Part shown: piece after piece, positions 5,639 to 58,800 of the stretch | How the letters are laid out: each line of letters starts with the position of its first letter | How positions within the stretch are numbered: position 1 is the stretch's first letter | From: Volutella citrinella | Taxonomy: Eukaryota > Ascomycota > Sordariomycetes > Hypocreales > Nectriaceae | Reading direction: 5' to 3' | Length of the DNA stretch: 64,000 bases | NCBI GenBank assembly: GCA_034401135.1 | Contig: JAWZSP010000009.1 | Coordinates: 496,001 to 560,000, forward strand | Translations under genes and position numbers: made by a program | Notes under the pieces: model-generated | The model's database searches: none | The model's input: the letters and a program-made list of their open reading frames with translations, nothing else | Told to the model about the DNA's origin: nothing

Positions 5639-6572
5639 TAGGCGACTAAATACAGCCAGAGCTGGGGTTATTATAAAAGTAATTGCATAATAGCTTAGAT
5701 TAAATAATTGTCAATTTAAGCAATCACGATATCTGAGCCAGCGAGGACTTTCGGGAATGAAGGGAAGTGGGATAAGGCACCATAATAAAGGCACCATCTG
5801 AGGCTAGAGAACTGTCAGAGATGCGAGAAAAGTTAGTAGCGAGCCGTAGGGAGTTTGGGGCTTACTAGGGAAGGCAGGCGCTGGACCAAGTTGCAGGACG
5901 ATTCTCGTAAACAATATGCGAGGTATTTATCTTTCCCGCTCGGCTCGTCGACCCTTGTTGGAGATTTACTTGCACTTGGGCTTTAGCTCTTGTTGCTGCC
6001 GCTATGCCGCTGCACGTCGTCCTACCGAACAGGATGGCCCTTTACAGGTTGGCGTCATTCACGGTCCCGATGGCAGCGGCTAGCGTAGCAATATCGATGC
6101 AGGCTTCTTTACGGTTCCCTGTTCAAATACACTGGCCACGGTTTAGGACTTTGGTAACGCCAAGAGGCTAATAGATTTTATACGTCGAGAATCGAGTTTG
6201 AGACTTATCGCTTAAACGACTATTCCGTCAGTGGCAGATGGTCAACATATTGAGCAATTGTCGCGACCAGATGCGATTAGTCAAGCGCGTTGATGTAAAA
6301 ATAGCAGCACTCGACCACTTGCTTATTCGCCAGAGCTCTGACGCCCGATGTAGGCACTCGTGCGACACCAAGCTCCGCTTTGGAACGGTCTAGACCATTT
6401 TCCCCAGGCGCCGCCTTTCAGCTTTCAGCCTTGCGCGGCGCGGCTTATTTTCTCCTCACAGGCCACAGGCAGCAGTAAGCAACAAATCGTTCAACTTGAC
6501 ATCACAGCCTACAGGCACCGCTGACGGCGCACCATACCAACGACGAGATTCCCGCGGGCTTTCTGTTTCGCC
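5639..6572. other. intergenic region, AT-rich then GC-rich, no gene seen
   Basis: The first ~150 bp are AT-rich (likely 3' UTR and terminator of the MDR gene). The rest is the promoter of the long Pro/Gln-rich gene, with a tandem CTTTCAG duplication near 6416-6430. No exon is supported. Confidence 0.45.
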
Positions 6573-9500
6573 ATGGTCGTGCTGGCAAGTTACCCCAATT
6601 ATAGGCCCAGCAGCGTCGCCCAGCTACCTGCCGGGCCCCGGCCGTCCACATATCAAACGGCATGCTTTCCACTAGCTCCTCATCCACCGGCGCTCACTGC
6701 GGCGTCACAGCGCGGCCCTGGATCTCCTCTGATAGTGACCCAAGGCGATGCTCCAATACATTCTCCTCGACCTTCACACCCGGCCTCCACGACCAATCTC
6801 CTCACAACGCAACTACCTGGTCCGGCAGTGGTTCATCCCGAGGCCTCTCCTCAACCGGCAAACCAGCAGGCCAACCCCATTCCTCAGCAGCCTCACCCTC
6901 AAGCACATCTTCCTTCAATGCAGCCGCCTGTCTCTGCAGTGCCCAGCTACCCATCCCATGTACTTCCACAGCCAACCCCTGGTGCTGCCCAAACTGCCGC
7001 CTTGCCGGGAAATCCTGTGCCGCAGCTCTCTCAGCCTCCTCCCTTACCACCGGCAACCTCACATCCCTATTACCAACCACAGCAAGGCCTGCAGGGGCAG
7101 CAAGTAGGTAGTGTACCTCAACTCCAGCCGGATGTGTCAACCGCTGCTGTTCAATCCAGCCAGTTCCATCCTGTATATCCAGGTGGTGTGAGTCCTCAAC
7201 CTCAGAGCCATCACTTCGCTCAGTCTCCACACGCTCCAGCGCAAGTTGTTGCCCAGCAATCTTCCATAACCCCTCTTCAGCCATCTTTGCAACAGCAGCA
7301 CCACATTCCCCATAGTCCCTCGCCATCTGCGGTGCCCCAGCCTCCATTCGTACAGCCTCCGGGTTCCCATCATCAGCCCCAGTTGCAACAGCCGCCCCTT
7401 CAAGAGTCACGCGTCCAACCCCCAGCTCTGCAACCGCATCCGCTACAGCCACAGCCTTTGCAAGCTCCGGCTCCACAGTTCCAGACTCAACCACACTTTC
7501 AAGCTCAGCAACCACCTCTCCAGCAACCACCTCTCCAGCAGCAACCTCTCCAGCAGCAACCTCTCCAGCAGCAACCTCTCCAGCAGCAACCTCTCCAGCA
7601 GCAACCTCTCCAGCAGCAACCTCTCCAGCAGCAACCTCTCCAGCAGCAACCTCTCCAGCAGCAACCTCTCCAGCAGCAACCTCTCCAGCAGCAACCTCTC
7701 CAGCAGCAACCTCTCCAGCAGCAACCTCTCCAGCAGCAACCTCTCCAGCAGCAACCTCTCCAGCAGCAACCTCTCCAGCAGCCGCCTCCTCATCAGCCGC
7801 CTCCTCAGCAGCAACCTCTCCAGCAACCGTATCTTCAAGCACCGCACACTGGGTCCCCGGCTCTACAGCCGCAACCTCCGCAGCCACAGCCACAACCTCA
7901 GCTTCAGTCTCCTCAAGCTCCAACTCTGTCACCACAGCCTCCTCCTCAAGTACCGCAGTTTCAGTATCAACAGCCAGAGTTCCAGCAGGCACAACCCTTC
8001 CAAGGGGCAACCCCCCTCGCGCAGGCCCAGGAACCGCAGTTTCAACTACAGCAACAACTGCAGCCATTTCAACCACAACTTCAGCAACATCAGCCGACGC
8101 AGCCTCAGCAGCAACTACTTCAACAACCGTACGCCCAACAGCCGCCTCAGCAGCCGTATTTCCAACAGCCACAGGTCCAACAGCCCGCTCCGTCAGTATA
8201 CCTACCAGACAACGCGCCCCAGCGCGGCGGTCCCGGAGAGCCCATGGTTCCTCCCCCTCATCAAACGAACGCTCCCGGGCTTGGACCAAACCCTCCAGGC
8301 GTCCTAGTCCCAGAAGATAACCAACCGCGGCCTCCACCTCCCGTCAGGGCAACAGGCCCGCCGGGCGAGGTAATATCGTACTGCCCCGAAGAGAGAGCCG
8401 TATGCTACGCCCTCAATTGGTACCGTCTTTCAGACGTCCCCGATTTTCTCATCTGCTCGAAATGTCATGAAGAACACATCCAGAAGACCACCCTTGCAAC
8501 CAGCTTTGAGCGCGTGAAGCAGCCCGATGGCTCCGTATCTACATGCGGCTTTTGGTACCCGCGCGTCAAGACAATTCTCTGGCCGCAGGCTCTACGCAGT
8601 GGAGATTTGACCACTCTTCGCAGTTTCATGAAGAAGCGAGCCGGTGTGCAAAATTGCAAAGGCCAGGTCGCCACCGCGGCATCCGACGGCATCAAGTGGT
8701 TCAGCATCGCGACGAAGGAGATTGAAGGATTCGTGGCCTGCGAAGCCTGTTACGAAGATCGCATTGTTGACACAGCCTTTGAGTCGAAATTCGCTCCAGA
8801 AAGCCAACAGCCACAGGATGACAGCTGGTCCTGTGACATGTGCAACCCATACATTTCTCGCCTCCTCGAGAAAACGCACCCACGGAACGACTGGCCAAGG
8901 TTCGTTTCCTCGGCGACTCGTCGAATGAAGGCGCCTGTGTGCGACGGCAAAGAGCAGTCTTCCAACTCGCGACTCTGGTTCGTGCCAGTCCGGCAGATCG
9001 AAGCCATGCATGTCTGCGAGACGTGTTATCTCGACAGGCTAGCTCTCACCCGGTTCGAGAGCGAGTTCCAGGCATACGCTCCCTCTTCAGGCTTTGGGGG
9101 TCTGTTGGAGCAACTTGGGGAGAACTGGGCGTGCAACCTGAACGAGTTGGCTATTTCCATGTGCGTCGCATTGGATTCCGCCATCTATCAACGCAACTTT
9201 TCCGTCTTCTGGAACGCAGCCGACGCAATCACTAGTCTCGTGCCCTGTACTGAGAACGGCATCATAGGCGGAAACTGGTGGACCCTCTCCGGGGGCTGTG
9301 ATGGCTTCAATATCTGTGAGGCCTGTTTCGTGGGCATCATGCAGACCGAGGCAATAACTCACTTCTTTCAGCCTACGCGTCGCCCCGAGGGCACAACCAC
9401 AGTGTGCAGCTTCTGTCCCGTCTCTCCGAGATGGGTTCAAAGCATCGCTAAGTTCGCTCAAGCAATCGACTATGGAGTCTTCAGTTACTACGGCGACTTT

Positions 9501-10109
9501 ATCAGGAAGTTTTCCGGGGTGCCCGCCTGCCCTGGTGTACAATCCCGCGAAGAAGGCACCTGGTGGGGTTTTGGAGAGGCGCTCTTCTGCCAGGATTGTT
9601 ACCTGTCGTTTGTTGCAGACACAGTCCTAAGGGCCCACCTACCCATCAAAGGAGACTTCGATAAGCGTGCTCACATCTGCCAGATATGGTCGCCCAGAAT
9701 GCGCACGATGTGGTTGGAAGTGTGTGCCGCTGGGTCGCCTGGGTCGCCAGAGTCGGAGGCGGCATTGCAGGAATTCAAGGCCTTTGGAGAGAAGCGAATA
9801 CAAGTTTGGTGTGCCACTATACCGCAGATCGAATATATCCAGAAGATGAAGGAGCTCAAGATGGTCAACGCGCTGCACCAAGGCCAGCTCGGCATCATGT
9901 ACCAGGGCATGAACTCGATGGCAGTGGTCTCAGGCCTCACTGACGGCTACCAGTACGGAAACAGCAGACTGGGCTGGCATGAGACTCAGCATGGCGTGAC
10001 TTCGGCCCAGAACTTTGAAAATATGCGAGCTGGGATGGCGGATGCAAACCGCGGAGATGAGTGGCAGCAGATTGCACAGATGCGGTTCATGTGGAGCCAA
10101 GTTGAGTAG
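6573..10109 (+). CDS. Pro/Gln-rich protein with five repeated Cys-containing modules
   Basis: Single-exon protein of 1178 residues; function unknown. The start at 6573 has a good context (GCCATGG). Residues 1-600 are low-complexity Pro/Gln/His, including 16 exact PLQQQ units (about 321-400). From about residue 603 the composition changes to a Cys/Trp-rich region. I see five related modules near 614-648, 706-740, 800-832, 900-932 and 996-1024. Each has an aromatic (W/Y/F) pair, a short spacer, then [F/H/N]xxCxxC[Y/F/H], followed by a Thr/Phe-containing helix (for example FVACEACYEDRI, MHVCETCYLDRL, FNICEACFVGIM, LFCQDCYL). Further conserved Cys (WSCDMC, CSFCPVSPRW, CQIWSPRM) lie between them. 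The CxxC pairs suggest metal binding, but this is inference. There is no signal peptide or membrane segment. The N-terminal part resembles a transcription-coactivator or phase-separating tail. Confidence 0.8.
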   Translation: MVVLASYPNYRPSSVAQLPAGPRPSTYQTACFPLAPHPPALTAASQRGPGSPLIVTQGDAPIHSPRPSHPASTTNLLTTQLPGPAVVHPEASPQPANQQANPIPQQPHPQAHLPSMQPPVSAVPSYPSHVLPQPTPGAAQTAALPGNPVPQLSQPPPLPPATSHPYYQPQQGLQGQQVGSVPQLQPDVSTAAVQSSQFHPVYPGGVSPQPQSHHFAQSPHAPAQVVAQQSSITPLQPSLQQQHHIPHSPSPSAVPQPPFVQPPGSHHQPQLQQPPLQESRVQPPALQPHPLQPQPLQAPAPQFQTQPHFQAQQPPLQQPPLQQQPLQQQPLQQQPLQQQPLQQQPLQQQPLQQQPLQQQPLQQQPLQQQPLQQQPLQQQPLQQQPLQQQPLQQQPLQQQPLQQPPPHQPPPQQQPLQQPYLQAPHTGSPALQPQPPQPQPQPQLQSPQAPTLSPQPPPQVPQFQYQQPEFQQAQPFQGATPLAQAQEPQFQLQQQLQPFQPQLQQHQPTQPQQQLLQQPYAQQPPQQPYFQQPQVQQPAPSVYLPDNAPQRGGPGEPMVPPPHQTNAPGLGPNPPGVLVPEDNQPRPPPPVRATGPPGEVISYCPEERAVCYALNWYRLSDVPDFLICSKCHEEHIQKTTLATSFERVKQPDGSVSTCGFWYPRVKTILWPQALRSGDLTTLRSFMKKRAGVQNCKGQVATAASDGIKWFSIATKEIEGFVACEACYEDRIVDTAFESKFAPESQQPQDDSWSCDMCNPYISRLLEKTHPRNDWPRFVSSATRRMKAPVCDGKEQSSNSRLWFVPVRQIEAMHVCETCYLDRLALTRFESEFQAYAPSSGFGGLLEQLGENWACNLNELAISMCVALDSAIYQRNFSVFWNAADAITSLVPCTENGIIGGNWWTLSGGCDGFNICEACFVGIMQTEAITHFFQPTRRPEGTTTVCSFCPVSPRWVQSIAKFAQAIDYGVFSYYGDFIRKFSGVPACPGVQSREEGTWWGFGEALFCQDCYLSFVADTVLRAHLPIKGDFDKRAHICQIWSPRMRTMWLEVCAAGSPGSPESEAALQEFKAFGEKRIQVWCATIPQIEYIQKMKELKMVNALHQGQLGIMYQGMNSMAVVSGLTDGYQYGNSRLGWHETQHGVTSAQNFENMRAGMADANRGDEWQQIAQMRFMWSQVE
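7531..7770 (+). repeat. 15-bp coding minisatellite, 16 perfect copies
   Basis: The unit CTCTCCAGCAGCAAC repeats without a mismatch 16 times and encodes PLQQQ in frame. Degenerate units flank it on both sides (PLQQP before, PLQQPPPHQ after). The perfect identity at DNA level, including silent positions, points to recent expansion by slippage or unequal exchange. The unit contains no stop in any of the six frames, which creates long false antisense frames over this gene. Confidence 0.97.
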
Positions 10110-10161: not shown

Positions 10162-10980
10162 TTATGAAACGCTAAAGGGTGTATCGTTAATATTTCCAAG
10201 GTGTAGAAGCAGCATTCGGAGGCTTTCAACAACCTGGTTGGCACACTCAAACTTCTCCTCCCAGCACATCTGAATGACCTCGGCTCCCACCACCCCTTGC
10301 AGATCTGGTAGCTGTCCCGCAGCATATTTTTCATTTATTTCGTGGTCCATCAGACCTCCCATCGGCTCTTTCCAAGCCATTATTTCCTAAATGGCTGATC
10401 CCAGAGCGAACAGCACTCTGTTTCGAACTGGTCTGTCCGCAACCTCTCTGCCTCGGCAAGGAAGCTCATAGGCTGGCTCCTCACACGCATATACCTTGAA
10501 ATCGTAATTTTCAATCATTGCACTTCCAAAGTCTCCAATTTTGACTTGGTGTCCTGGAAATAAGAACAGGTTTCGGCAGCTCAGATCGCTGTGCTGAACC
10601 GATCTCTCATGAACAAACGCCAACCCCAGCGCGGCGTCCAAGCTCATTCTCAATCTTGCTGCAATGGGGAAATCTTCACCCGGTTTCTTGTTAATAAAAG
10701 CCCGTAGGTCCCGGAATGGTGCATATTCCAGGCGCAGCGAGTGAATTCCTGTGTCAAGCTCCTCAAGATCATAGCATCTTAGGATATTCGGATGTTCTCC
10801 AAGATGCTTGTAGATTGTGTTCTCTCGCAGTACTAACTGCTCCAATTCTACCCCTTCGTCAGAGTATTCGCCAACGAATTTGCCATCTTCCCAAATCTGG
10901 TAGCCTTTGAGGACTGTCTTCTCATCCGTGGACGTCACGTAGCTCGTACCGCCAATGCCGACAATTGCAAACGAGGGCAT
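10162..10980 (-). CDS. protein-kinase-like gene interrupted by one in-frame TAG
   Basis: A kinase fold of 272 codons reads on the minus strand from ATG 10980 to the stop at 10162, interrupted only by TAG at 10389-10387 (codon 198). Visible motifs are a Gly-rich start (VGIGGTS), VLK (K25), an alphaC-like Glu (E53), HSDLSCRN (D132, N137), DFG (D150) and EPAYELPCRGRE for the activation/P+1 region. After the stop, in the same frame, come EIMAWKEPMGGL and IQMCWEEKFECANQVVESL, the normal C-lobe. The stop takes the place of the W/Y before E-I in subdomain IX. The Asp expected before FALG is Val here (NRVLFALG), a possible sign of decay. It is either a young pseudogene, a truncated 197-aa protein, or a gene rescued by stop-codon recoding. 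It is divergent from the NLR gene. Confidence 0.72.
10375..10396 (-). promoter_or_regulatory. hairpin with the premature TAG in its loop
   Basis: On the sense (minus) strand AGCCATT (10396-10390) and AATGGCT (10381-10375) are exact inverse complements, enclosing the 8-nt loop TAGGAAAT. The premature stop TAG is the first three loop bases, and its A (10388) is preceded by T. In Fusarium and Neurospora, A-to-I mRNA editing prefers an A with U on its 5' side in a hairpin loop, and UAG to UGG changes are known from kinase genes. Whether this transcript is edited cannot be seen from DNA. Confidence 0.55.
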
Positions 10981-11524: not shown

Positions 11525-14500
11525 ATGCGGCACCATATTCTTGATGTGGGCATCTCCGTCGCATACGAACCCGACCAAGGTGACCCTATCGTTGAGTAAG
11601 CAGAGCATCCCGACTTAGACCTTGCTGGGGTTGCTCACATTTACGCAGCATCGTCTTCGTCCATGGACTGCATGGACACCCCCGCACAACATGGACTGGT
11701 AAAAGACGCTCGAATCCTACGGCTTCTTCATCGTCGCCGCTGCCAGCTGACACAGTAACAACACAAGAGAGGGCTCGCTCTGGCATTTTTCGACAGACCT
11801 TATCCCGACTTAGTGGGCACTCTTCACCTGCCAAGGCTTCTCAATCTACCAATAAAGAAAGACAAGTTGCCCAGGCCCATACTGTTTTCTGGCCCTCTGA
11901 ACTGCTCCCAGTCGAGTGTCCAGACTCCCGCGTGCTCATGTTTGGCCACTATTCCAAAACCAAGAGCTATGCCTCGGGCCCGAGCAGTCTTCAATCACAT
12001 GCCAAAGATCTCCTCCTTTCGCTATCTCAAATCACCCATCCTGGTCGGCCGTTGATCTTTGTAGCGCATAGCCTAGGCGGCATTATCGTCAAAGAGGTAG
12101 GTGCTGACTCCGGTGTAGCGGGTTGATACAAGACTTACCACAGCAGATGCTGGCATTGTCGTCAAAGCATGCGGACCCTGAGGCTCTCAACATCATCCAG
12201 TCGACAAATGCCGTCGTTTTTCTCGGCACACCACATCGGGGTAGTCCGAAACTCGCATTGTTTGGCGAAAAGATTCGATCGGTGGTTAATGTCCCTCAGA
12301 TGGTGGCCAGGCCAGTTCTCCTGGGCTCCCTCGGGCTTAAGAATACAGACCTAGAGCGAGCCCACGAAACTTTTTGTGACTTATGGGGAACCTACGATTT
12401 CCGCATCAAGACATTCCAAGAAGGCTTAGGCTCGAAGGGCATGGGCATGGGGCCCCAGGGGACCAAGGTTGTGGTGCACTCGTCCTCCTTGATTGGCGAT
12501 ACACGAGAGCGGCCGGAGACTCTTGAGGCAAACCACCAAGAAATATGCCGCTTCACTGGCCCAGACGATCCAAACTACCATAGGGTCGGGAGAGAAATCC
12601 AGTCGCTTTACCAAGCAATTGTCGATTCAACATTGCAGAACGCACAGGTCCTTCGTGATGCCAACCCCAGGCCTCAGGGTGGTCTTAGAGAGCGCTCCCT
12701 ATCGCAGACTTCTCGGGATTACACACTACATGACACAGAAAAGTCCTGCCTTCGGTCCCTTTGGTTTCCTCAGATGCATTTCCGACAACATGGCATCGAA
12801 TTACCCACGCAATCCACATGTTCTTGGCTTTTTGAGCATGATGTGTATCGCCATTGGTACAACGACAGCAGTCGACACAAGCACCAAGGTCTATTGTGGA
12901 TTAAAGGCAAGCCGGGTACTGGGAAGTCCGTTCTTGTCAAGGAAGCGTTACGCCGGGCCAGACTTGACGAGGCCTCGCTTGGTCACGCAGTAGCCGCATT
13001 CTTCTTCAGTGCAAAGGGAGACCGACTGGAGCACTCAGCAGAAGGAGTCTTTCGTTCTATTCTGCATCAACTAGCAACAGAGAACCCACGCTGGCGCAAG
13101 GGTTTCGTCAAAAGCTGGCATGATCGAACCGGGGCGACGAGTCTTTCGAATGGTGCACCGAGCCACTGGACAGAGGCAGACCTGGAGAGTTCTACGACAT
13201 CTCTGCTAACCAGTGCCCTTCCGAGGAGAACAATCATTTTCATCGACGCTCTCGATGAATGTGACCAAGACAGCATAGAACCGCAAGCCAGCTTTTGGCG
13301 ACATGTGACCAAACTGGCGCACGACGCAGGCGTTCGGTTAAGCGTGTGTTTTTCCAGTCGGCACTATCACGGCATACCTCTGGAAGATTATGCGGAGATA
13401 GCGGTCGAAGACCATAATTCCCAAGCCATAAGAGCTTTTGTCACCGACAAGTTTCGTATCCTGGCCCAAAGGGACGATGGTGGGTGGAAGGGAACCGAGG
13501 GCATGAGAGAGCGCATCATTGAGAGGTCCTCTGGCGTCTTTCTCTGGGCTTCTATCGTTGTGGAAACAGCACTACAAAGCTGGGACGACGGCAGAGGGTT
13601 CCTTCGCTTGTCTAGGATGATGTATCGGAGTGTACCAGAGACGCTCGAGACTCTTTTTACAACACTCCTGTCAGGGGTGAGCCCCGAGTCAACGCGAATG
13701 ACACTTCGACTGTTTCAATGGGCTATACTATCAACGAAGCCCCTCATGCTGGATGAATGGCATCACATTCTTGCATTTATTAGGGAGCCTCCCCCTTCAT
13801 CGCTTTTCCAATGGCAACTATCAGAGTATTTTCCCTCAACAGACGATGAACTAGAGAGGCGCATCAAATACATGTCCAGAGGCTTGCTAGAGATCAGCAA
13901 GCCCCAAGTGGAACGTCCGCAGGATAAGGCTGTCGACGCCAGCTCGGTACGTGCGGGGGCCAGGTCTCTGGGCTGTGAGCAGGGAGAAACTCGCTTCGTT
14001 CAAGTCATTCACGAGTCTGTGCGAGAGTTCTTTCTCCAAAGCCCTGGTTTCAGTGCCCTCGATCCATATCCGGGGCCTATTCCTCAATGCATCGGATTGG
14101 GTCATCTAGCGATTATGAAGACGTGCCTAGACTATTTGCGCATAAGAGAGCTTGATGAGCTTGTGGCTACGCGAGTGGGAGCGAGCCATGTGGCCAGAGC
14201 CAGCAGGGATCATATGCTGTCTACTCGAGGTTCTTCCCAGCCAGGAGTGTACGAGGATTCTGATGCCGGTAACATCCAACTTCCAGTCTCAGGGTGTTCT
14301 GCAAATCTAGAGACTGAACAGACGCATTCTTCGGAAATCCCCAACGAAAATGAAGGCTATGGGATCAACATCCTCGAATGGGCGCAAGCCATCACAGCAC
14401 ACACGACCGAGTCCCGACCGGCATCTCTCTCTTCCGCCAGGACCAGCATTCTTGAAGTCTCTCCACATCCTGCACTTCTCTTCTATGCTACCTATGAGCT

Positions 14501-15368
14501 ATTCGAGCACGCCAAGATGGCTCAGGGTTGTGCCGTAGATCCCATCGCAGTCATTGAGCACTTGATGCAAAAAGCATCTTGGGAGCGTTGGGTCATCCTC
14601 AATGAGGACGTTCCTGCAAACTGCCAGCTGCTTGATTACGCCCACGATATGGGATTATCTTCATGGCGTGAGGGCATTCTCGACAATCGGCGGAACTTAG
14701 ATCTATTCGCAACGGCTGTGACAGATACGCCTCTCACCATATCGACACCCAGACGCTCTCAGCTCCCAGCGCACAGAAGCAACGTCATGGGTGGAAAAAG
14801 CTCGAGAGCTGCAGAAAGCAATACCAGCACACCAATCCCTTGTCCAGACATGAGAGCATCCTCACGTGGTATTACCAGCCAGGTAGCTCCCAGCGATCCT
14901 TCCCAGCCTGGTACAGCAGTGACGGTAGCCCAGTGCCCGGAGCCGGAGTGCAACGGGCGGCCGTTTCTGACCGAGTTTGCTTTACGACGACACACAAGAC
15001 TTTTGCACAGAGCGTCTTCGCACACGAAAGATCAGTACCTATGTGACTACCCGCGTTGTAGCCGCAAATCCGATCCCTTTGTTCGCCGAGACCACTTCCG
15101 TGATCATGTACGGGAGTACCACCGCGAAGACGTCTTAAAGCGTAGCCAAGCTATCACAGAGGAGTGGCTCGATAGTCGATCGATTAACGAGCGATGGATG
15201 CGTTGCTCAAGATGCCTTGGACGAATATCCTTTCCCCGAAAGGGCTCACAGTGTCCTCACTGCAGGAACGAATGCGAGAGTATGCGTATGGCGCGGCGCA
15301 TACAAGAGCGGGCAGACCATTTCCCGATGATTCGAAAATCAGCAGTAGTCATGCCTCATGAACGCTGA
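11525..15368 (+). CDS. fungal NLR: alpha/beta hydrolase (SesB-like) - NACHT - zinc fingers
   Basis: STAND NTPase of about 1246 residues, likely involved in non-self recognition or heterokaryon incompatibility as for related fungal NLRs. Exons: 11525-11595, 11649-12096, and from 12144 or 12147 (a CAGCAG tandem acceptor) to 15368. The N-terminal hydrolase domain shows VFVHGLHGHP (H29) and the nucleophile elbow AHSLGG (S165), then VFLGTPHRG. NACHT follows with Walker A GKPGTGKS (427-434), Walker B IIFIDALDECD (536-546), and a winged-helix-like part ending VIHESVREFFL. The C-terminus has no ankyrin, TPR or WD repeats. Instead there are two C2H2-like fingers (near 1102-1128 and 1137-1165) and a CxxC...CxxC ribbon (near 1191-1213). 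Exon 1 was chosen because it restores the family motif DIVFVHGL across the junction. Confidence 0.88.
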
Positions 15369-52735: not shown

Positions 52736-55700
52736 TTAGGCAAGCCCGAGGAACTTAAGCGCCTTGCGGCTGTTGCCCCGACGGCTGTCGGCCTTGGGCA
52801 CAAGTAGCGGCATGATACGGCGGTCCTCCATATCCCAATCGCTGTCGCTGAGGTCCATGTCCTCCTCGACAACCGAGCGGCCACCCACCGCCGACTGCTT
52901 GCGGCGAGCCTTGGTGCGGCTGGTCTTTGACTTGGATGACTTGGACGTTTTGGCTGTCTCGGCGATGGATGGTGCCCGCGAGGAGAACCCAGGCGACGAT
53001 GGCCGACCCGTGCCGAATCGAGCCGTCATGGCCGGCGACATGGGCGGGCTTTGCGGACCGATGGTCACCTTAGGGAATGCAGAGAAGGTCCCCTGCAGCG
53101 GTGCCGGCTTGGCCTTGTCCTTCTTGGGCGACGGCTTCCTGGACGGCTCCTCGGGGACGTAAAAGGATGAAATCTCGGACAGGATCTTGAGAACCGTCGA
53201 GACGAAGGTAGCAATCTCCGACTCGCTTGCGCTCGATGTCAATAGGAAGTTTGCCTTGGAGATGGTGACATCGTAGGATGAGCTGGAGTTGGACGATAGC
53301 GAGGTGCCTAGGCGTGGTGAGGGCGCCTGCTCCATGCCATTGATGTTGGTGCCACGCAGGTTCGTGAATGGCAGCACATCCTTGCTGGCCGAGTCGACAA
53401 CCTGTGCTACTTTCATCAGGTCCACCCCGACGAGCTTCTGCAGGGCCAGCATCGTTGGCAGGTGCTCAGGCGGGTACTCGAGTAGGAGGTACCTAACCTC
53501 CGAGTGCAGAGTCAGGTATGTCTCGAGATGGGGAATGATGAGAGTTGCAAGGAGATATGAGTTGTTGAAAGGATTGTCGTGCGTCTGGCTGGTGAGAGGC
53601 TGGGCTGTGAAGGCCTGCATGGCGTTGGCGAGAAGATACCTTGGGTCCAGTTAGCAGCGTCTCAAGAAACACCTTGACCAGGGAAACCCTACCTAAAATC
53701 CAGCCTGCCACTGCGGCTCATGCCACTCGGCTTGTTACCTAGCTTCTCGAGCTGGCCGGTGATGGCTGAGGCGTAGTCCTTCTTGACGCCGCGCTGAGCC
53801 CCAATGGCCAGAATTTGGTCCATCCTACGGCCACTGGCTCGCGAGCTGGCTGTCCTCGAACTCCCCGGACGCGAGCTGCTCGGTTCGGCGTCGTGGAATA
53901 TGGGTCGCCATAGCCCCTCGAGCTCAGGCAGGAGAGGGAACTGAAACTGACGGTAACCCTGTGTTTCTGGCGGGAAGTGCACCTTGAGGACCGATCGCAG
54001 CGAGTTTTGGATCGTCACAGCCGTCTGCTGGCTGGTAATCTTGAACTCGTGGATCTTCTCGTCATTCTCCGACGTAAAAGGCGGAGGGGGAGGTGTCTTG
54101 GCCGGCGTGGGAGGGCGCTCGACTTGCACCGCCTGCACGGTGGCGGGCGCAATTTTGGGCGCAACCCATGTAGACTGTGAGTAGGCAAAGGGATCGTACT
54201 CTTCCGTGTAACTGTCCCGTGCTACGACGGCAAGCTCCCGGTACGACGTCTCAATACCGTCCGCGTCATGTAGCTGGTGAGATTTGGGTGTTCCTGGATC
54301 TGACACATGGGGACTGTCGGATTCGGATACCGTGGATGAAGGTGAGACAACCGGGTAACTTCCAGCTCGGAAGCCCCGAACTACGGAGTCGAGGATGACG
54401 TCCGGTACTTCATCCTTGAAGTGAACAACAAGGTCTTCCGAAAAGGGTAGGACAGGCATGAAGGCCATCTCCGGATCGGGAATCTCCTCTGCGTCGGTGC
54501 CTCGGTCAACGTAGGACGCCCTAGCAGGCTTGCGTTTCTTCTCTGCTGGCACAGGCGAAACCTTGACCGCGGCTCGATTGGATCGAACTACTACGGTGCG
54601 AGGGCCCTCAATGTAACTCAGGCGGCTTGGCCGCGACTGATTGGAGCTGTTGATGACCATGCACGAATGCCTGCGGCCCTCGACGGCCTTCTCGTCCTTA
54701 ACATTCTGCCCAGCTTCACACTCAGCCTCGCGCTCGAGCGCTGATGCATCTGAAGGAATGCACAAGTCCCGGTACTTGGGAGTGGCAGGATAGATTCGGT
54801 CCAGCGACTTGACTCTGCTCATGGTTGCCCGGCGTCCTGACTGTCGCATGTCCAGGATCGAGGCTTCCCCGTACACGACATTATCTGTGGAGCGGATGCT
54901 GAAGTCGTCGGATCGTGGGGTGAATACATCGGGCCCAATGACCGACTGGAAGTTGACGGATGCATATGTCTCGCCAATGCAACTGGGAGATTTGGCCAGG
55001 GTCTTGGGCATTGGCGGCGTCAGATTGGTGAAGCCGGGGTAGAGTGTCTCAGTGGGTTTGTCGTAGTGTGTGACCGCAAACATGGGGGAGCGTGGGCTAA
55101 CCACCTCCTCAACCGGCTCCTCGCACATGCTTTCAACACCATCCTGGTCCTTGGCGCCAAAGACAAAAAAAGGTGCGGCGTCGCCAAAGTTATCAGCATA
55201 GCCGTAGAGGGGAAGGCTGTTGCTGCGGGTGCGGGTGCCCAGGGTTAGGTCCAGCTCGTTTGAGGGCTGCAGGCTGGCCGTTTGACGATCCAGGGCGTCG
55301 GCAGCTCGCATCGCACGTGTAATTGGATCCTCAAACTGGTGGCTGAAGTCGTTCTCGCCGAAGTATTCGAACGTGCTCCCTCGCTTCCAGTCCCGCGTTG
55401 GGTTCTCCATCTCCGCCAGCCCGTCCTTGACGAGCCGGTGGAAGAAGCTCTCCGCCTGCTCAAAGTCGCCGTCCGTCTCATGCTCCATGATTGCCTTGAT
55501 GCACATTGCGTGGGCGCTTGTTGTGCCGCCATTGAGGAAAACGAGGCGCTTGCTGCTTGGCGTCGATCCCTGGAGGAAAGTCTGGGCGGCTTTGTTTCGC
55601 GCCATGGCAGCATCGTGTATTCTTTTGACAAGGCGGCGCGCATCGAAGCTATGGCTGATGTCGTCGTCGCTCTCCTTTTTCGCTGCATAGCTCTGGATGC

Positions 55701-55812
55701 TGGGAAGGATGAGAATCTGGGGTGAGGTGGGGAGCAGTCGCAACTGCGTCGAGATGGTCTCGGCATGGCCCTCGAAGGCGACGACGCTCCCAAGGAGATG
55801 TTTTTCGGACAT
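52736..55812 (-). CDS. large disordered fungal protein (of the type often labelled gastric mucin-like)
   Basis: Predicted 1007 residues, exon 1 55812-53693 and exon 2 53639-52736 (53-nt intron, GTAGGG...CTGCTAAC...CCCAAG). ATG 55812 (MSEKHLLGSVVAFEGHAETIS) is chosen because the upstream open frame is low-complexity and looks like UTR. Residues 1-160 form a folded domain (QLRLLPTSPQILILPSIQSY, FLNGGTTSAHAMCIKAIME). The centre is Ser/Pro-rich with proline-directed phosphorylation sites. Around 580-800 there is a second conserved part: EKIHEFKITSQQTAVTIQNSLRSVLKVHFPP, GLWRPIF, then DYASAITGQLEKLGNKPSGMSRSGRLDFR and YLLANAMQAFTAQPL. The C-terminus has a basic tract (KSKTSRTKARRKQS) and an acidic one. 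Function is unknown; no membrane segment is present. Confidence 0.85.
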
Positions 55813-58800
55813 GGTGGCTGTGAGTGCGCTGCTGGCCGAGAAGCAGAGCTCGGGTAGAGTAGAGAGTAGAAAGAATACTGGAGGAGGTTGCGCCGTGATC
55901 GTATCGAATTCTAGGCCTGAACGGGTGAGGCCATCAACATTGGTGAATCGTATTGCTGGGCATGAATAATAATGATGGAACCTCAGGCAGGTATTTCCGC
56001 TCGCTGAACTGAATTGACAAAGTAGAAAGGTAGCCACGCGATAAGGGCGGTGACGGAATGAAAGAAGAAAACAAGAAGCGGGTGTGGGTGGGTGAAGAGG
56101 CGTTGAAAAGGTGGCGAGACAAAGAGACGGAGCTGGGTGAGGGCTGGAGGTAGAAGGGTGAGATTGGAAAGTGAGACCCAATGGAGCAGAGGCAGGAGCG
56201 AAGAAAGACGGCAATTAGAGTTGCCTGACGGATTTATGGTCAAAGAAGGAAAGGCAGGAACAGGCTCGCGTGCTTGCCTAGTCGGACGTGTGGGAGGTAT
56301 GAGGATGAGCGTTGGGAGTCAGTGAGGGAAGGAAGGCCGTCCTTGGTATAAGACGTCCCGGAATAGGGTCGATAGCACCAAGCAAGCCGTCTTTGGGTTT
56401 TCCGTTTTCCTGGGATTATGAATTGCTATGTACACCTCACCTCGTACCCCTCTCCCGGACCTTCAATCGACCCTGTCCCCACGCCAGACCTGCAAAGCTG
56501 CAAAGAGCTGCAAGCCACAAAAGCGAAAGCCCACCAAACGAGACAAGGGCAAAAGATCGGCTGTCCAGACTCCAGCGTCAATCCCAACGGGAGCCCAGCA
56601 CGAACCAGCGTGCCATTGGCCACGGCCGGCGACGACGACGGTGCACTAGGCGGTAGCTCGCAGCCCCGAGTTTCTTTTTCCCTGGCCTCCGTCAAGACGG
56701 ACATACATAGTACGCAGTAATTACGGTACACTGCATTGCGCATTGCATGGCATGTATGCCCAAGCAGGGCAAGGCTTTCAGCGAGCGCGCTTGGGAAGGG
56801 GGGATTGGCCTGCACAGGTTGCTTGGCTGGCTGGACTGGACCTGGCTGTTCGCAGTGGCGGCCACACAGAGTCCAGGATTGACTCTGGCGCAACGGATCC
56901 TGGCATTGGAGCGACCGACGGCGTTGATGCAAGCGACACACAATTGACTGGTGGACGGGAATGGCGGTTTGCACAACCTTCTGCTGCCGCCCCTTCTTGC
57001 CCTCTTCACTCCTGCTCCTGCTCCGCGCCCCAGGATAGCTCGCCTGGCCCCAGCTTAAGCCCCAGCGGGGCCGTCGCCGCATCCTGGCTGCCCTGAGGCT
57101 TGGACCATGGATGGTATCGCGGGGCCACGCCGAGGGCCGCCCAGAGTGGACGGTGGCCACGGCGGGCCACCTAAGGCTCTAACACACAGTCTAAACGACG
57201 CCGGGATGCCCGGATCGCAGGAGGGATGGCTTTGAGATCAATGGATGCCACAATGGAGGCGCCAGCCTACTGTTGCTACTTGGATGATCAGTGTGCTTGT
57301 GTGTTGGCGCCTCTTCAGACGGTACTCTGGTTTAGGTACTCCTGCGCAGTGTTACGGTGCGTTGGTTAAGCTGTGCTATGCCAGCTGCGTCTCACTCTTC
57401 AGCGTCTCCGTTCGGCGCTTGCGCAGGTCATGAAGGCTTGCAGCTTCGCCTTGGCCACCAACTGGGCCCTGCCGCTGGGCGAACCTGGCTCTTAATCCAC
57501 TCACTAATTGCCCGGCAGGATTGGGATCCGGTCACACCTATTCCTGGATCACGAAATGTAAGGGCGGCTGTTGTTTGCACCTCAGATTGGCTCTCGCCCT
57601 GCCTCGACGGAGCTGCTGTCAACAGGTGTTCCCTGCTCTTCCGCTTGTTGCGGGTGTGTCAGCCTCCGCACCGGCTGGCTTGCCCATCACGCCTGTCGCC
57701 CAGCGCCCCCTCTCAGCACACACACAGGGTCGTGCAAACACAAATCGCCGAGGTAATTACGAGTACCATAGCTGCCGCGTTCGGATACATGGCACAGAGA
57801 TGCACAGCCATGCTCTGGGCCGAACTTCAGCTTAGCCCTTGACCTGAGCGACACTCTCACAGGGCTTGGAGATTGGCGGCGTTGGATGAATGCTATTGGA
57901 GACGTGATTGTTTGCTCTATACCCGTCTGACATCACCGAGGCCAGGAAGGAACTGGCTTACGCCAATTGGTACCCCTTCCCAGGCCTTGGATTCGTCGCC
58001 TACGCAAGTGCATGCGCTTCCCTTTGTCCTGGGGGCCTCTGGTCTAGTCCTAGGGCCTGCGGCAGACGAACGCCCTACGCGGCTACAGCCAAGGCCAATC
58101 AAGCGAACTGCCCCCCCACGTCACTTTCAGGGGCTAATCTGTTCGTTCGTGCCCAGACCCTGGTGCTCACGATCTCGGGAGACGCTCTCGATGTGATGCT
58201 AGCCCACTTTGCGTCCCACGGCCGGCGCTGTACGGGTTCGGCCCTATGACGACCATGGGCAATTGTCGATCAACATAAGCGACGGATGCGGCCATAAAGT
58301 TGGATTGATGGGTTGGATGGCCCGGGGGACAGGACCGAAAAAGAAAAGGAGAAATCCACCTCCGACAAGTGAATCAACCATGCCCCGATGTCGACTTCAG
58401 TGATGAAGAAGGGTCTGTCCGTCGTGGCTGATGCCAGCCCTGTTGTCCCTCCCCTGGCGGCCTGGCGGTCTCGAATTGTCTCTGCCATCCTCTTGGCTGA
58501 GGCTTGAATAGCCAATCCAACGGCACGACAAAAGTACTGATATTGCGCAGGCGGCCGAGCACAATGCCCATCCATTGTGCCACACAGTATTACTACGCCC
58601 TGTAGGACGGTTGACCATGGGCAGAGCAGCGACAGTGCACGTCTGTTTCCCGCTTCTCCACCCTGCGTTTGCCCTCCCTTGCCCCCTGCTTTTGCGGCAA
58701 AAGAAACTTGGTGCCAGGGCCAGCCAGGGACCTGGGATGTCTCCGCCCTACCCCCAACCGAACCTCTAGCGCCGGCTATTTCCCCTCCCCTGTGCAAGAT

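What the first reader, a model, noticed from the sequence alone, without database searches (positions are those of the whole stretch)
10375..10396. Premature TAG of a kinase-like gene sits in the loop of a perfect hairpin: candidate A-to-I stop-codon recoding
On the sense strand, 7-bp arms AGCCATT/AATGGCT enclose TAGGAAAT, and the only stop that interrupts a 272-codon kinase frame is the first triplet of that loop. Fungal A-to-I editing (Fusarium, Neurospora) prefers U at -1 and a hairpin-loop A. The Fusarium graminearum kinase gene PUK1 is a known case where UAG stops become UGG. Editing here would place Trp before Glu-Ile, exactly where kinases have W or Y in subdomain IX. Frame, position, residue and RNA structure all agree.
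Basis: partly seen in the sequence, partly recalled or inferred. Interest (0 to 1): 0.88.

Follow-up and report, generated by a model that had tools for sequence, protein, structure and literature searches.

The report
Kinase gene with a hairpin-loop stop
A fungal kinase gene is cut by one stop codon that looks like a target for RNA editing, but relatives carry a different amino acid there, so it may simply be a recently broken gene; RNA reads are needed to tell.

Summary
A 272-codon kinase frame (10980-10162, minus strand) is interrupted once, by TAG at 10389-10387, in the loop of a perfect 7-bp hairpin. The host is Fusarium-like (Nectriaceae). It probably edits mRNA: a PUK1-like kinase carries TGG-TAG where PUK1 is edited, and one DUF726 gene has the Ame1 key residues. 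The context fits all six published preferred positions. Of 117 possible one-base nonsense changes in this gene, only this one combines that with a 7-bp hairpin.

Against editing: in 112 relatives the column is Tyr 104, Phe 3, Cys 1, gap 4, Trp 0, so editing would not restore the family residue. Such hairpins occur at chance frequency, and the peptide A-I-x-E-I-M-A dictates much of stem and context. Two columns at least 97% conserved are altered. PUK1-type relatives instead encode Trp-Trp or have broken gene models there.

Verdict: a recent uncorrected nonsense mutation (0.48) is slightly more likely than a lineage-specific editing site (0.40). RNA-seq would decide.

The parts
10162..10980 (-). 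Kinase-like open frame, 272 sense positions with one internal stop
   Evidence: Pfam PF00069 6.1e-14 on the part before the stop, no match on the part after it alone; PF07714 5.8e-16 to residue 244 when read through
10387..10389 (-). Premature TAG, codon 198; A at 10388 would be the edited base
   Evidence: Tyr in 104 of 112 relatives; six-of-six context
10390..10396 (-). 5' arm of the hairpin (codons for Ala-Ile and one base before)
10375..10381 (-). 3' arm of the hairpin (last base of an Ile codon, then Met-Ala codons)
10382..10389 (-). Loop UAGGAAAU, A in second loop position
10162..10386 (-). Part after the stop, 74 codons open; no worse conserved than the part before
   Evidence: identity ratio rank 31 of 108; terminal-branch ratio rank 19 of 56
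10414..10416 (-). Codon 189, Val where 106 of 108 relatives have Glu or Asp (subdomain IX acidic residue)
10768..10770 (-). Codon 71, Asp where 105 of 106 relatives have Gly

Best explanation
This is a single-copy, small kinase-like gene of a patchily distributed fungal family, recently disabled by one nonsense mutation at a codon that specifies tyrosine in its relatives. The hairpin is largely a by-product of the conserved peptide Ala-Ile-Tyr-Glu-Ile-Met-Ala, whose codons make most of the arms, and the six-position context follows mostly from the flanking Ile and Glu codons. Translation stops after residue 197, before the C-terminal helices of the kinase fold, so the product is probably inactive. 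Shown: the stop, the otherwise open frame, Tyr in relatives, the peptide origin of the hairpin, no close paralogue. Inferred: that the mutation is recent and uncorrected, and that the truncated product is inactive.
For: Tyr in 104 of 112 relatives, Trp in none. Hairpins of this size are at chance frequency. With peptide and TAG kept, synonymous redraws (3000) give six-of-six in 84%, a hairpin-loop A in 47%, a stem of at least 5 bp in 22%. The gene has no close paralogue (other own-genome hits 27-34% identical over part of the length) and no relative above 56% identity, as in a dispensable, patchy family. Two unusual changes at columns at least 97% conserved, G71D and E189V; second longest path in its clade of 20 and fourth longest terminal branch of 109. 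No conserved stop at this column: 108 of 112 gene models run through it, unlike PUK1 relatives.
Against: Only 1 of 117 possible nonsense changes in this gene lands in so editing-like a place, and 0 of 1518 in eight other open frames; a stem of at least 7 bp appears in only 3.9% of synonymous redraws. Apart from the stop, conserved columns show no general decay: 6 of 74 deviate counting the stop column, rank 36 of 111, and the part after the stop is not worse than the part before. The host probably edits.
Confidence: 0.48

Rival explanations
1. Premature-stop-correction editing. In fruiting bodies the Tad2-Tad3-Ame1 deaminase converts the loop A of UAG to inosine, the ribosome reads UGG, and a full-length kinase with Trp198 is made only then; the stop keeps the kinase off during vegetative growth.
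For: Six-of-six preferred context and a stable 7-bp hairpin; 62% of F. graminearum sites lie in hairpin loops. The host has a PUK1-like gene with TGG-TAG at the edited place and a DUF726 gene with M-V, E, R and D at the Ame1 positions 500-501, 546, 548 and 589. The frame is clean on both sides of the stop. Trp is found there in EGFR and a Src/Abl ancestor.
Against: No Trp in 112 relatives, whereas known sites are described as correcting G-to-A changes of TGG. No sign of the site in relatives except possibly P0092. Part of the resemblance is dictated by the peptide. The host's own PUK1-like stop fits only 3 of the 6 positions, so the context score is not a sharp predictor.
Confidence: 0.4
2. 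Sequencing or assembly error, or a null allele private to the sequenced isolate.
For: A single base separates the stop from a Tyr codon, the residue of 104 of 112 relatives; the rest of the frame is open.
Against: No reads were available to test it; no direct evidence for it.
Confidence: 0.08
3. The TAG lies in an unrecognised intron, or is read through by the ribosome.
For: PUK1-type genes are often annotated with false introns at such sites, and the P0092 model skips this segment.
Against: Flanking residues are conserved and align without insertion, so an intron would delete invariant residues. UAG followed by G is not a known leaky context (recalled).
Confidence: 0.04

Closest known systems
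PUK1 / STK-21 premature-stop-correction site (Fusarium graminearum, F. verticillioides, Neurospora crassa)
   Same: In-frame UAG in subdomain IX of a kinase, in a Sordariomycete (PMC4817773, passages).
   Different: A different, small non-NDR kinase; the stop is seven codons downstream of the PUK1 site; relatives have Tyr, not Trp; no conservation seen. The host has a separate PUK1-like gene.
CHE1 hyphal editing site of Fusarium graminearum
   Same: Single premature UAG in a predicted hairpin loop of a short gene (PMC11169179, passages).
   Different: Zinc-finger gene; the stop is conserved in related Fusarium species and editing was observed; neither is shown here.
Ordinary single-lesion pseudogene
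   Same: One lesion, no close orthologue seen, patchy family.
   Different: The lesion sits in an editing-like context.

Membership tests
Fungal premature-stop-correction (UAG to UGG) editing sites | A-to-G difference between RNA and DNA at the UAG | not testable with these tools
   no RNA reads available
Fungal premature-stop-correction (UAG to UGG) editing sites | Preferred context at -2 to +4 and A in a hairpin loop (typical, not obligatory) | tested here: met
   six of six, 7-bp stem; preferences from PMC9600606, parts 1-2 of 7
Fungal premature-stop-correction (UAG to UGG) editing sites | Trp or a stop at the site in relatives (usual for the sites described as correcting G-to-A changes) | tested here: not met
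   Tyr 104, Phe 3, Cys 1, gap 4, Trp 0 of 112; gene models only, no DNA of relatives
Fungal premature-stop-correction (UAG to UGG) editing sites | Host with Ame1-type cofactor and editing | tested here: inconclusive
   one of three DUF726 genes has the Ame1 residues, and a PUK1-like gene has TGG-TAG; editing itself not observed
PUK1 orthologue group | NDR-type kinase with D-W-W in subdomain IX and the stop in that motif | tested here: not met
   this gene has V-L-F-A-L-G and the stop seven codons further on; the PUK1-like gene is elsewhere, on contig C1
Eukaryotic protein kinase domain | Pfam kinase domain above its cut-off | tested here: met
   52.5 bits before the stop against a cut-off of 31.7; 59.0 bits against 23.1 read through
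Eukaryotic protein kinase domain | Catalytic Lys, HxD Asp, Asn and DFG Asp present | tested here: met
   K25, D132, N137, D150; but the acidic residue of subdomain IX is Val

The most novel reading that the evidence does not exclude
A lineage-specific editing switch born from a tyrosine codon: a stop that arose by transversion at an already hairpin-forming codon and that editing turns into a tryptophan not seen there in any sampled relative. Editing would then create a new kinase variant as well as restoring length, and a conserved peptide would have pre-formed the RNA substrate on which a new editing-dependent stop arose.
Probability: 0.37. Interest if true: 0.62.

Novelty: new member of a known kind. 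Interest (0 to 1): 0.4.

Why it matters
If edited, it would be a further premature-stop-correction gene, in a fungus at some distance from F. graminearum, and one that does not fit the Trp-restoring pattern, so it would bear on whether such sites must descend from TGG. If not edited, it warns that hairpin plus UAG is weak evidence: a conserved peptide such as A-I-Y-E-I-M-A generates much of the hairpin and context by itself.

Tried and rejected
Intron over the TAG: rejected, flanking residues are conserved and align without insertion. Old decayed pseudogene: rejected, 6 of 74 conserved columns deviate counting the stop column (5 of 73 without it), rank 36 of 111, and the part after the stop is not worse than the part before. 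A clean frame is nonetheless weak evidence: by my own arithmetic from the 117 nonsense changes, about one further stop is expected in 819 bp at 3% neutral divergence. Paralogue as source: the DNA query matched only itself, and the other 11 own-genome protein matches are 27-34% identical. Relatives at DNA level: scans of prokaryote genome contigs and viral contigs confirmed none. RID as a second control: no stop inside the three DNA-methylase matches, uninformative because I could not check where the F. graminearum RID stop lies. Qi et al. 2024 (PMC10776026) is not held (seen only in a reference list), so the share of sites with a non-Trp ancestor is unknown to me.

Limits: homologues are gene models, so a stop at this column would show only if it breaks the model. 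Of 136 kinase matches in the own genome, 35 carry stops; I translated 13 of these. Among those 13 only the PUK1-like one has its stop inside uninterrupted kinase sequence; in the others it sits at the edge of the match or beside sequence that does not align, as at introns (my reading, no RNA); the other 22 were not looked at. That gene is called PUK1-like from its motif, type and position; no listed hit bears the name PUK1, and only the best 120 of 2467 hits were sorted; a first sorting with a narrower pattern found 11 D-W-W models and was replaced. The Ame1 positions were set by distance from the nucleophile column, assuming no indels; that column itself is Arg, not Ser; the published S531A,H629A mutant was normal. 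In the decay tests two remote homologues of 112 were dropped; in the trees also rows with more than 40% gaps (109, 109 and 105 rows kept). The host is named only by protein similarity.

Full report
Observation. The minus-strand frame from ATG at 10980 to TAA at 10164-10162 has 272 sense positions and one internal stop, TAG at 10389-10387. The arms 10396-10390 and 10381-10375 pair perfectly over 7 bp around UAGGAAAU. The 22-mer folds at -7.8 kcal/mol (1 of 200 shuffles as good); the hairpin persists in 56- and 106-nt windows with weaker z-scores, -2.2 (4 of 200 shuffles as good) and -1.4 (20 of 200). The part before the stop scores as a protein kinase (PF00069, 6.1e-14), the 74 residues after it alone match nothing; with the stop read as a residue the kinase match runs to residue 244 (PF07714, 5.8e-16).

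Host. A gene in the window (53689-56211, residues 150-650 searched) is 70% identical to Fusarium nematophilum and 63-69% to the next named Nectriaceae in the list, but only 51-57% to many other Fusarium species. The genome has 45.1 Mb in 26 contigs. The kinase gene is single copy: the DNA query matches only itself, and the 11 other protein matches are 27-34% identical over part of the length. Of 112 relatives, 110 are 39-56% identical and two are remote; they come from many ascomycetes, and the Fusarium members are no closer than those of other orders. The gene thus belongs to a patchy family, with no close orthologue in that protein collection.

Does the host edit mRNA? Probably. A kinase search of the own genome gave 136 matches; I translated 13 of the 35 that carry stops. 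One, on contig C1, reads C-D-W-stop-S-I-G-I-I-L-Y-E-C-L with TGG TAG. Its stop lies between 1761 and 1845 nt into the coding region, depending on which of 13 possible introns is used, and its best relatives include NDR/cbk1-named kinases of Hypocreales, none bearing the name PUK1. F. verticillioides PUK1 is reported with UGGUAG, N. crassa with UAGUGG and F. graminearum with UAGUAG at 1830-1835, in subdomain IX (PMC4817773, passages; PMC11156358, parts 1-2 of 3). In the 120 best relatives of 2467, 28 gene models read D-W-W through, 17 end at C-D or C-D-W, 35 skip the segment and 40 lack the anchor motif: the annotation signature described for the edited gene. One of three DUF726 genes carries M-V, E, R and D at the offsets of Ame1 residues 500-501, 546, 548 and 589; the other two have A-H and S-L at 500-501 (positions from PMC11087585, passages). 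The same copy has Arg at the nucleophile column; the published S531A,H629A mutant was normal in sexual development. Six loci carry the OTT_1508 deaminase domain, the domain of the OLD editing proteins of Neurospora (PMC12754623, passages).

Does this site look like an editing site? PMC9600606 (parts 1-2 of 7) reports enrichment of C/U at -2, U at -1, A/G at +1, G at +2, and A/G at +3 and +4, and 62% of sites in hairpin loops. The site reads U-U-A-G-G-A-A and fits all six; U at -1 and G at +1 are given by TAG itself. Of 117 one-base nonsense changes possible in this gene, 47 give TAG, 6 of these have six of six, 12 a hairpin-loop A, 3 both, and only the present one a stem of at least 7 bp as well. 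In eight other open frames of the window the figures are 1518, 756, 29, 254, 11 and 0. This is real but moderate support. The host's own PUK1-like stop fits only 3 of 6 and sits in a weak hairpin, so the score is not a sharp predictor.

Where the hairpin comes from. Perfect hairpins of this size are at chance frequency: 25 in the window against 22-32 in five shuffles, 0.29 expected in the ORF. Five of the seven pairs come from the codons for Ala-Ile before the stop and Met-Ala after it when Ala is GCC (sequence inspection), the commonest Ala codon in the eight frames (143 of 377). Keeping the peptide and the TAG and redrawing synonymous codons gives six of six in 84% of 3000 draws, a hairpin-loop A in 47%, a stem of at least 5 bp in 22% and of at least 7 bp in 3.9%. 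A-I and M-A are both present in 39 of 112 relatives. The agreement of frame, position and structure is partly one fact counted several times; the full 7-bp stem is still at the lucky end.

The residue test. At the stop column 104 of 112 relatives have Tyr, 3 Phe, 1 Cys, 4 a gap, none Trp. Editing would give Trp, which is acceptable in a kinase, since EGFR and a Src/Abl ancestor have it there, but it is not this family's residue. Known sites are described as correcting G-to-A changes of TGG. The implied change here is a transversion at the third position of a Tyr codon (inference).

Decay test. Of 74 columns at least 85% conserved, 6 deviate counting the stop column, 5 of 73 without it (rank 36 of 111). 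With residues grouped by class and the stop column left out, 2 of 51 columns at least 97% conserved deviate, G71D and E189V: rank 14 of 111, with 18 rows (this one included) at or above. E189 is the acidic residue of subdomain IX, Glu or Asp in 106 of 108. The part after the stop is not worse than the part before: identity ratio rank 31 of 108 counted from the worst, terminal-branch ratio 1.01 against a median of 1.19 (rank 19 of 56). Against a well-kept gene: its terminal branch is the fourth longest of 109 and its path the second longest in its clade of 20 (0.68 against a mean of 0.48 for the others), though across the tree its root-to-tip length is unremarkable (rank 48 of 109). There is no long decay; a young null allele and an edited gene are both compatible.

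Weighing. For editing: probable host competence, context and hairpin, clean frame. Against: Tyr column, no clear sign of the site in relatives, hairpin largely explained by the peptide, two odd residues, patchy family. I put a recent uncorrected nonsense mutation at 0.48 and editing at 0.40; these are judgements, not computed posteriors. P0082, an unnamed model, also departs from the family here.

Noticed in passing
G000 contig C1:3689407-3689595 (loci L035, L036): PUK1-like kinase with TGG TAG in the D-W-W motif, the arrangement reported for F. verticillioides PUK1; a ready positive control for editing in this host.
   Followed up: partly
P0092 (Thermothelomyces heterothallicus CBS 203.75): Gene model of a family relative jumps from F-S-L-G to Y-S-R-D-E-F, skipping the segment that holds this stop; may hide a stop there.
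   Followed up: no
G000 contig C3:2005458-2006535 (L032): DUF726 gene with the Ame1 key residues but Arg at the nucleophile column.
   Followed up: partly
G000 C11:20162, C3:4504948, C4:352361, C7:2667149, C10:249398, C1:6319655 (L038-L043): Six loci with the OTT_1508 deaminase domain of the OLD editing proteins; neighbours not checked for zinc-finger partners with stops.
   Followed up: no
window 12108-15368 (+): 1086-residue open frame with an NPHP3_N/NACHT-like ATPase domain, of the fungal NLR-like kind.
   Followed up: no
window 6525-10109 (+): 1194-residue open frame with a long QQPLQ repeat tract and a Cys-rich C-terminal part, no Pfam match; three other long open frames overlap the repeat tract.
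   Followed up: no
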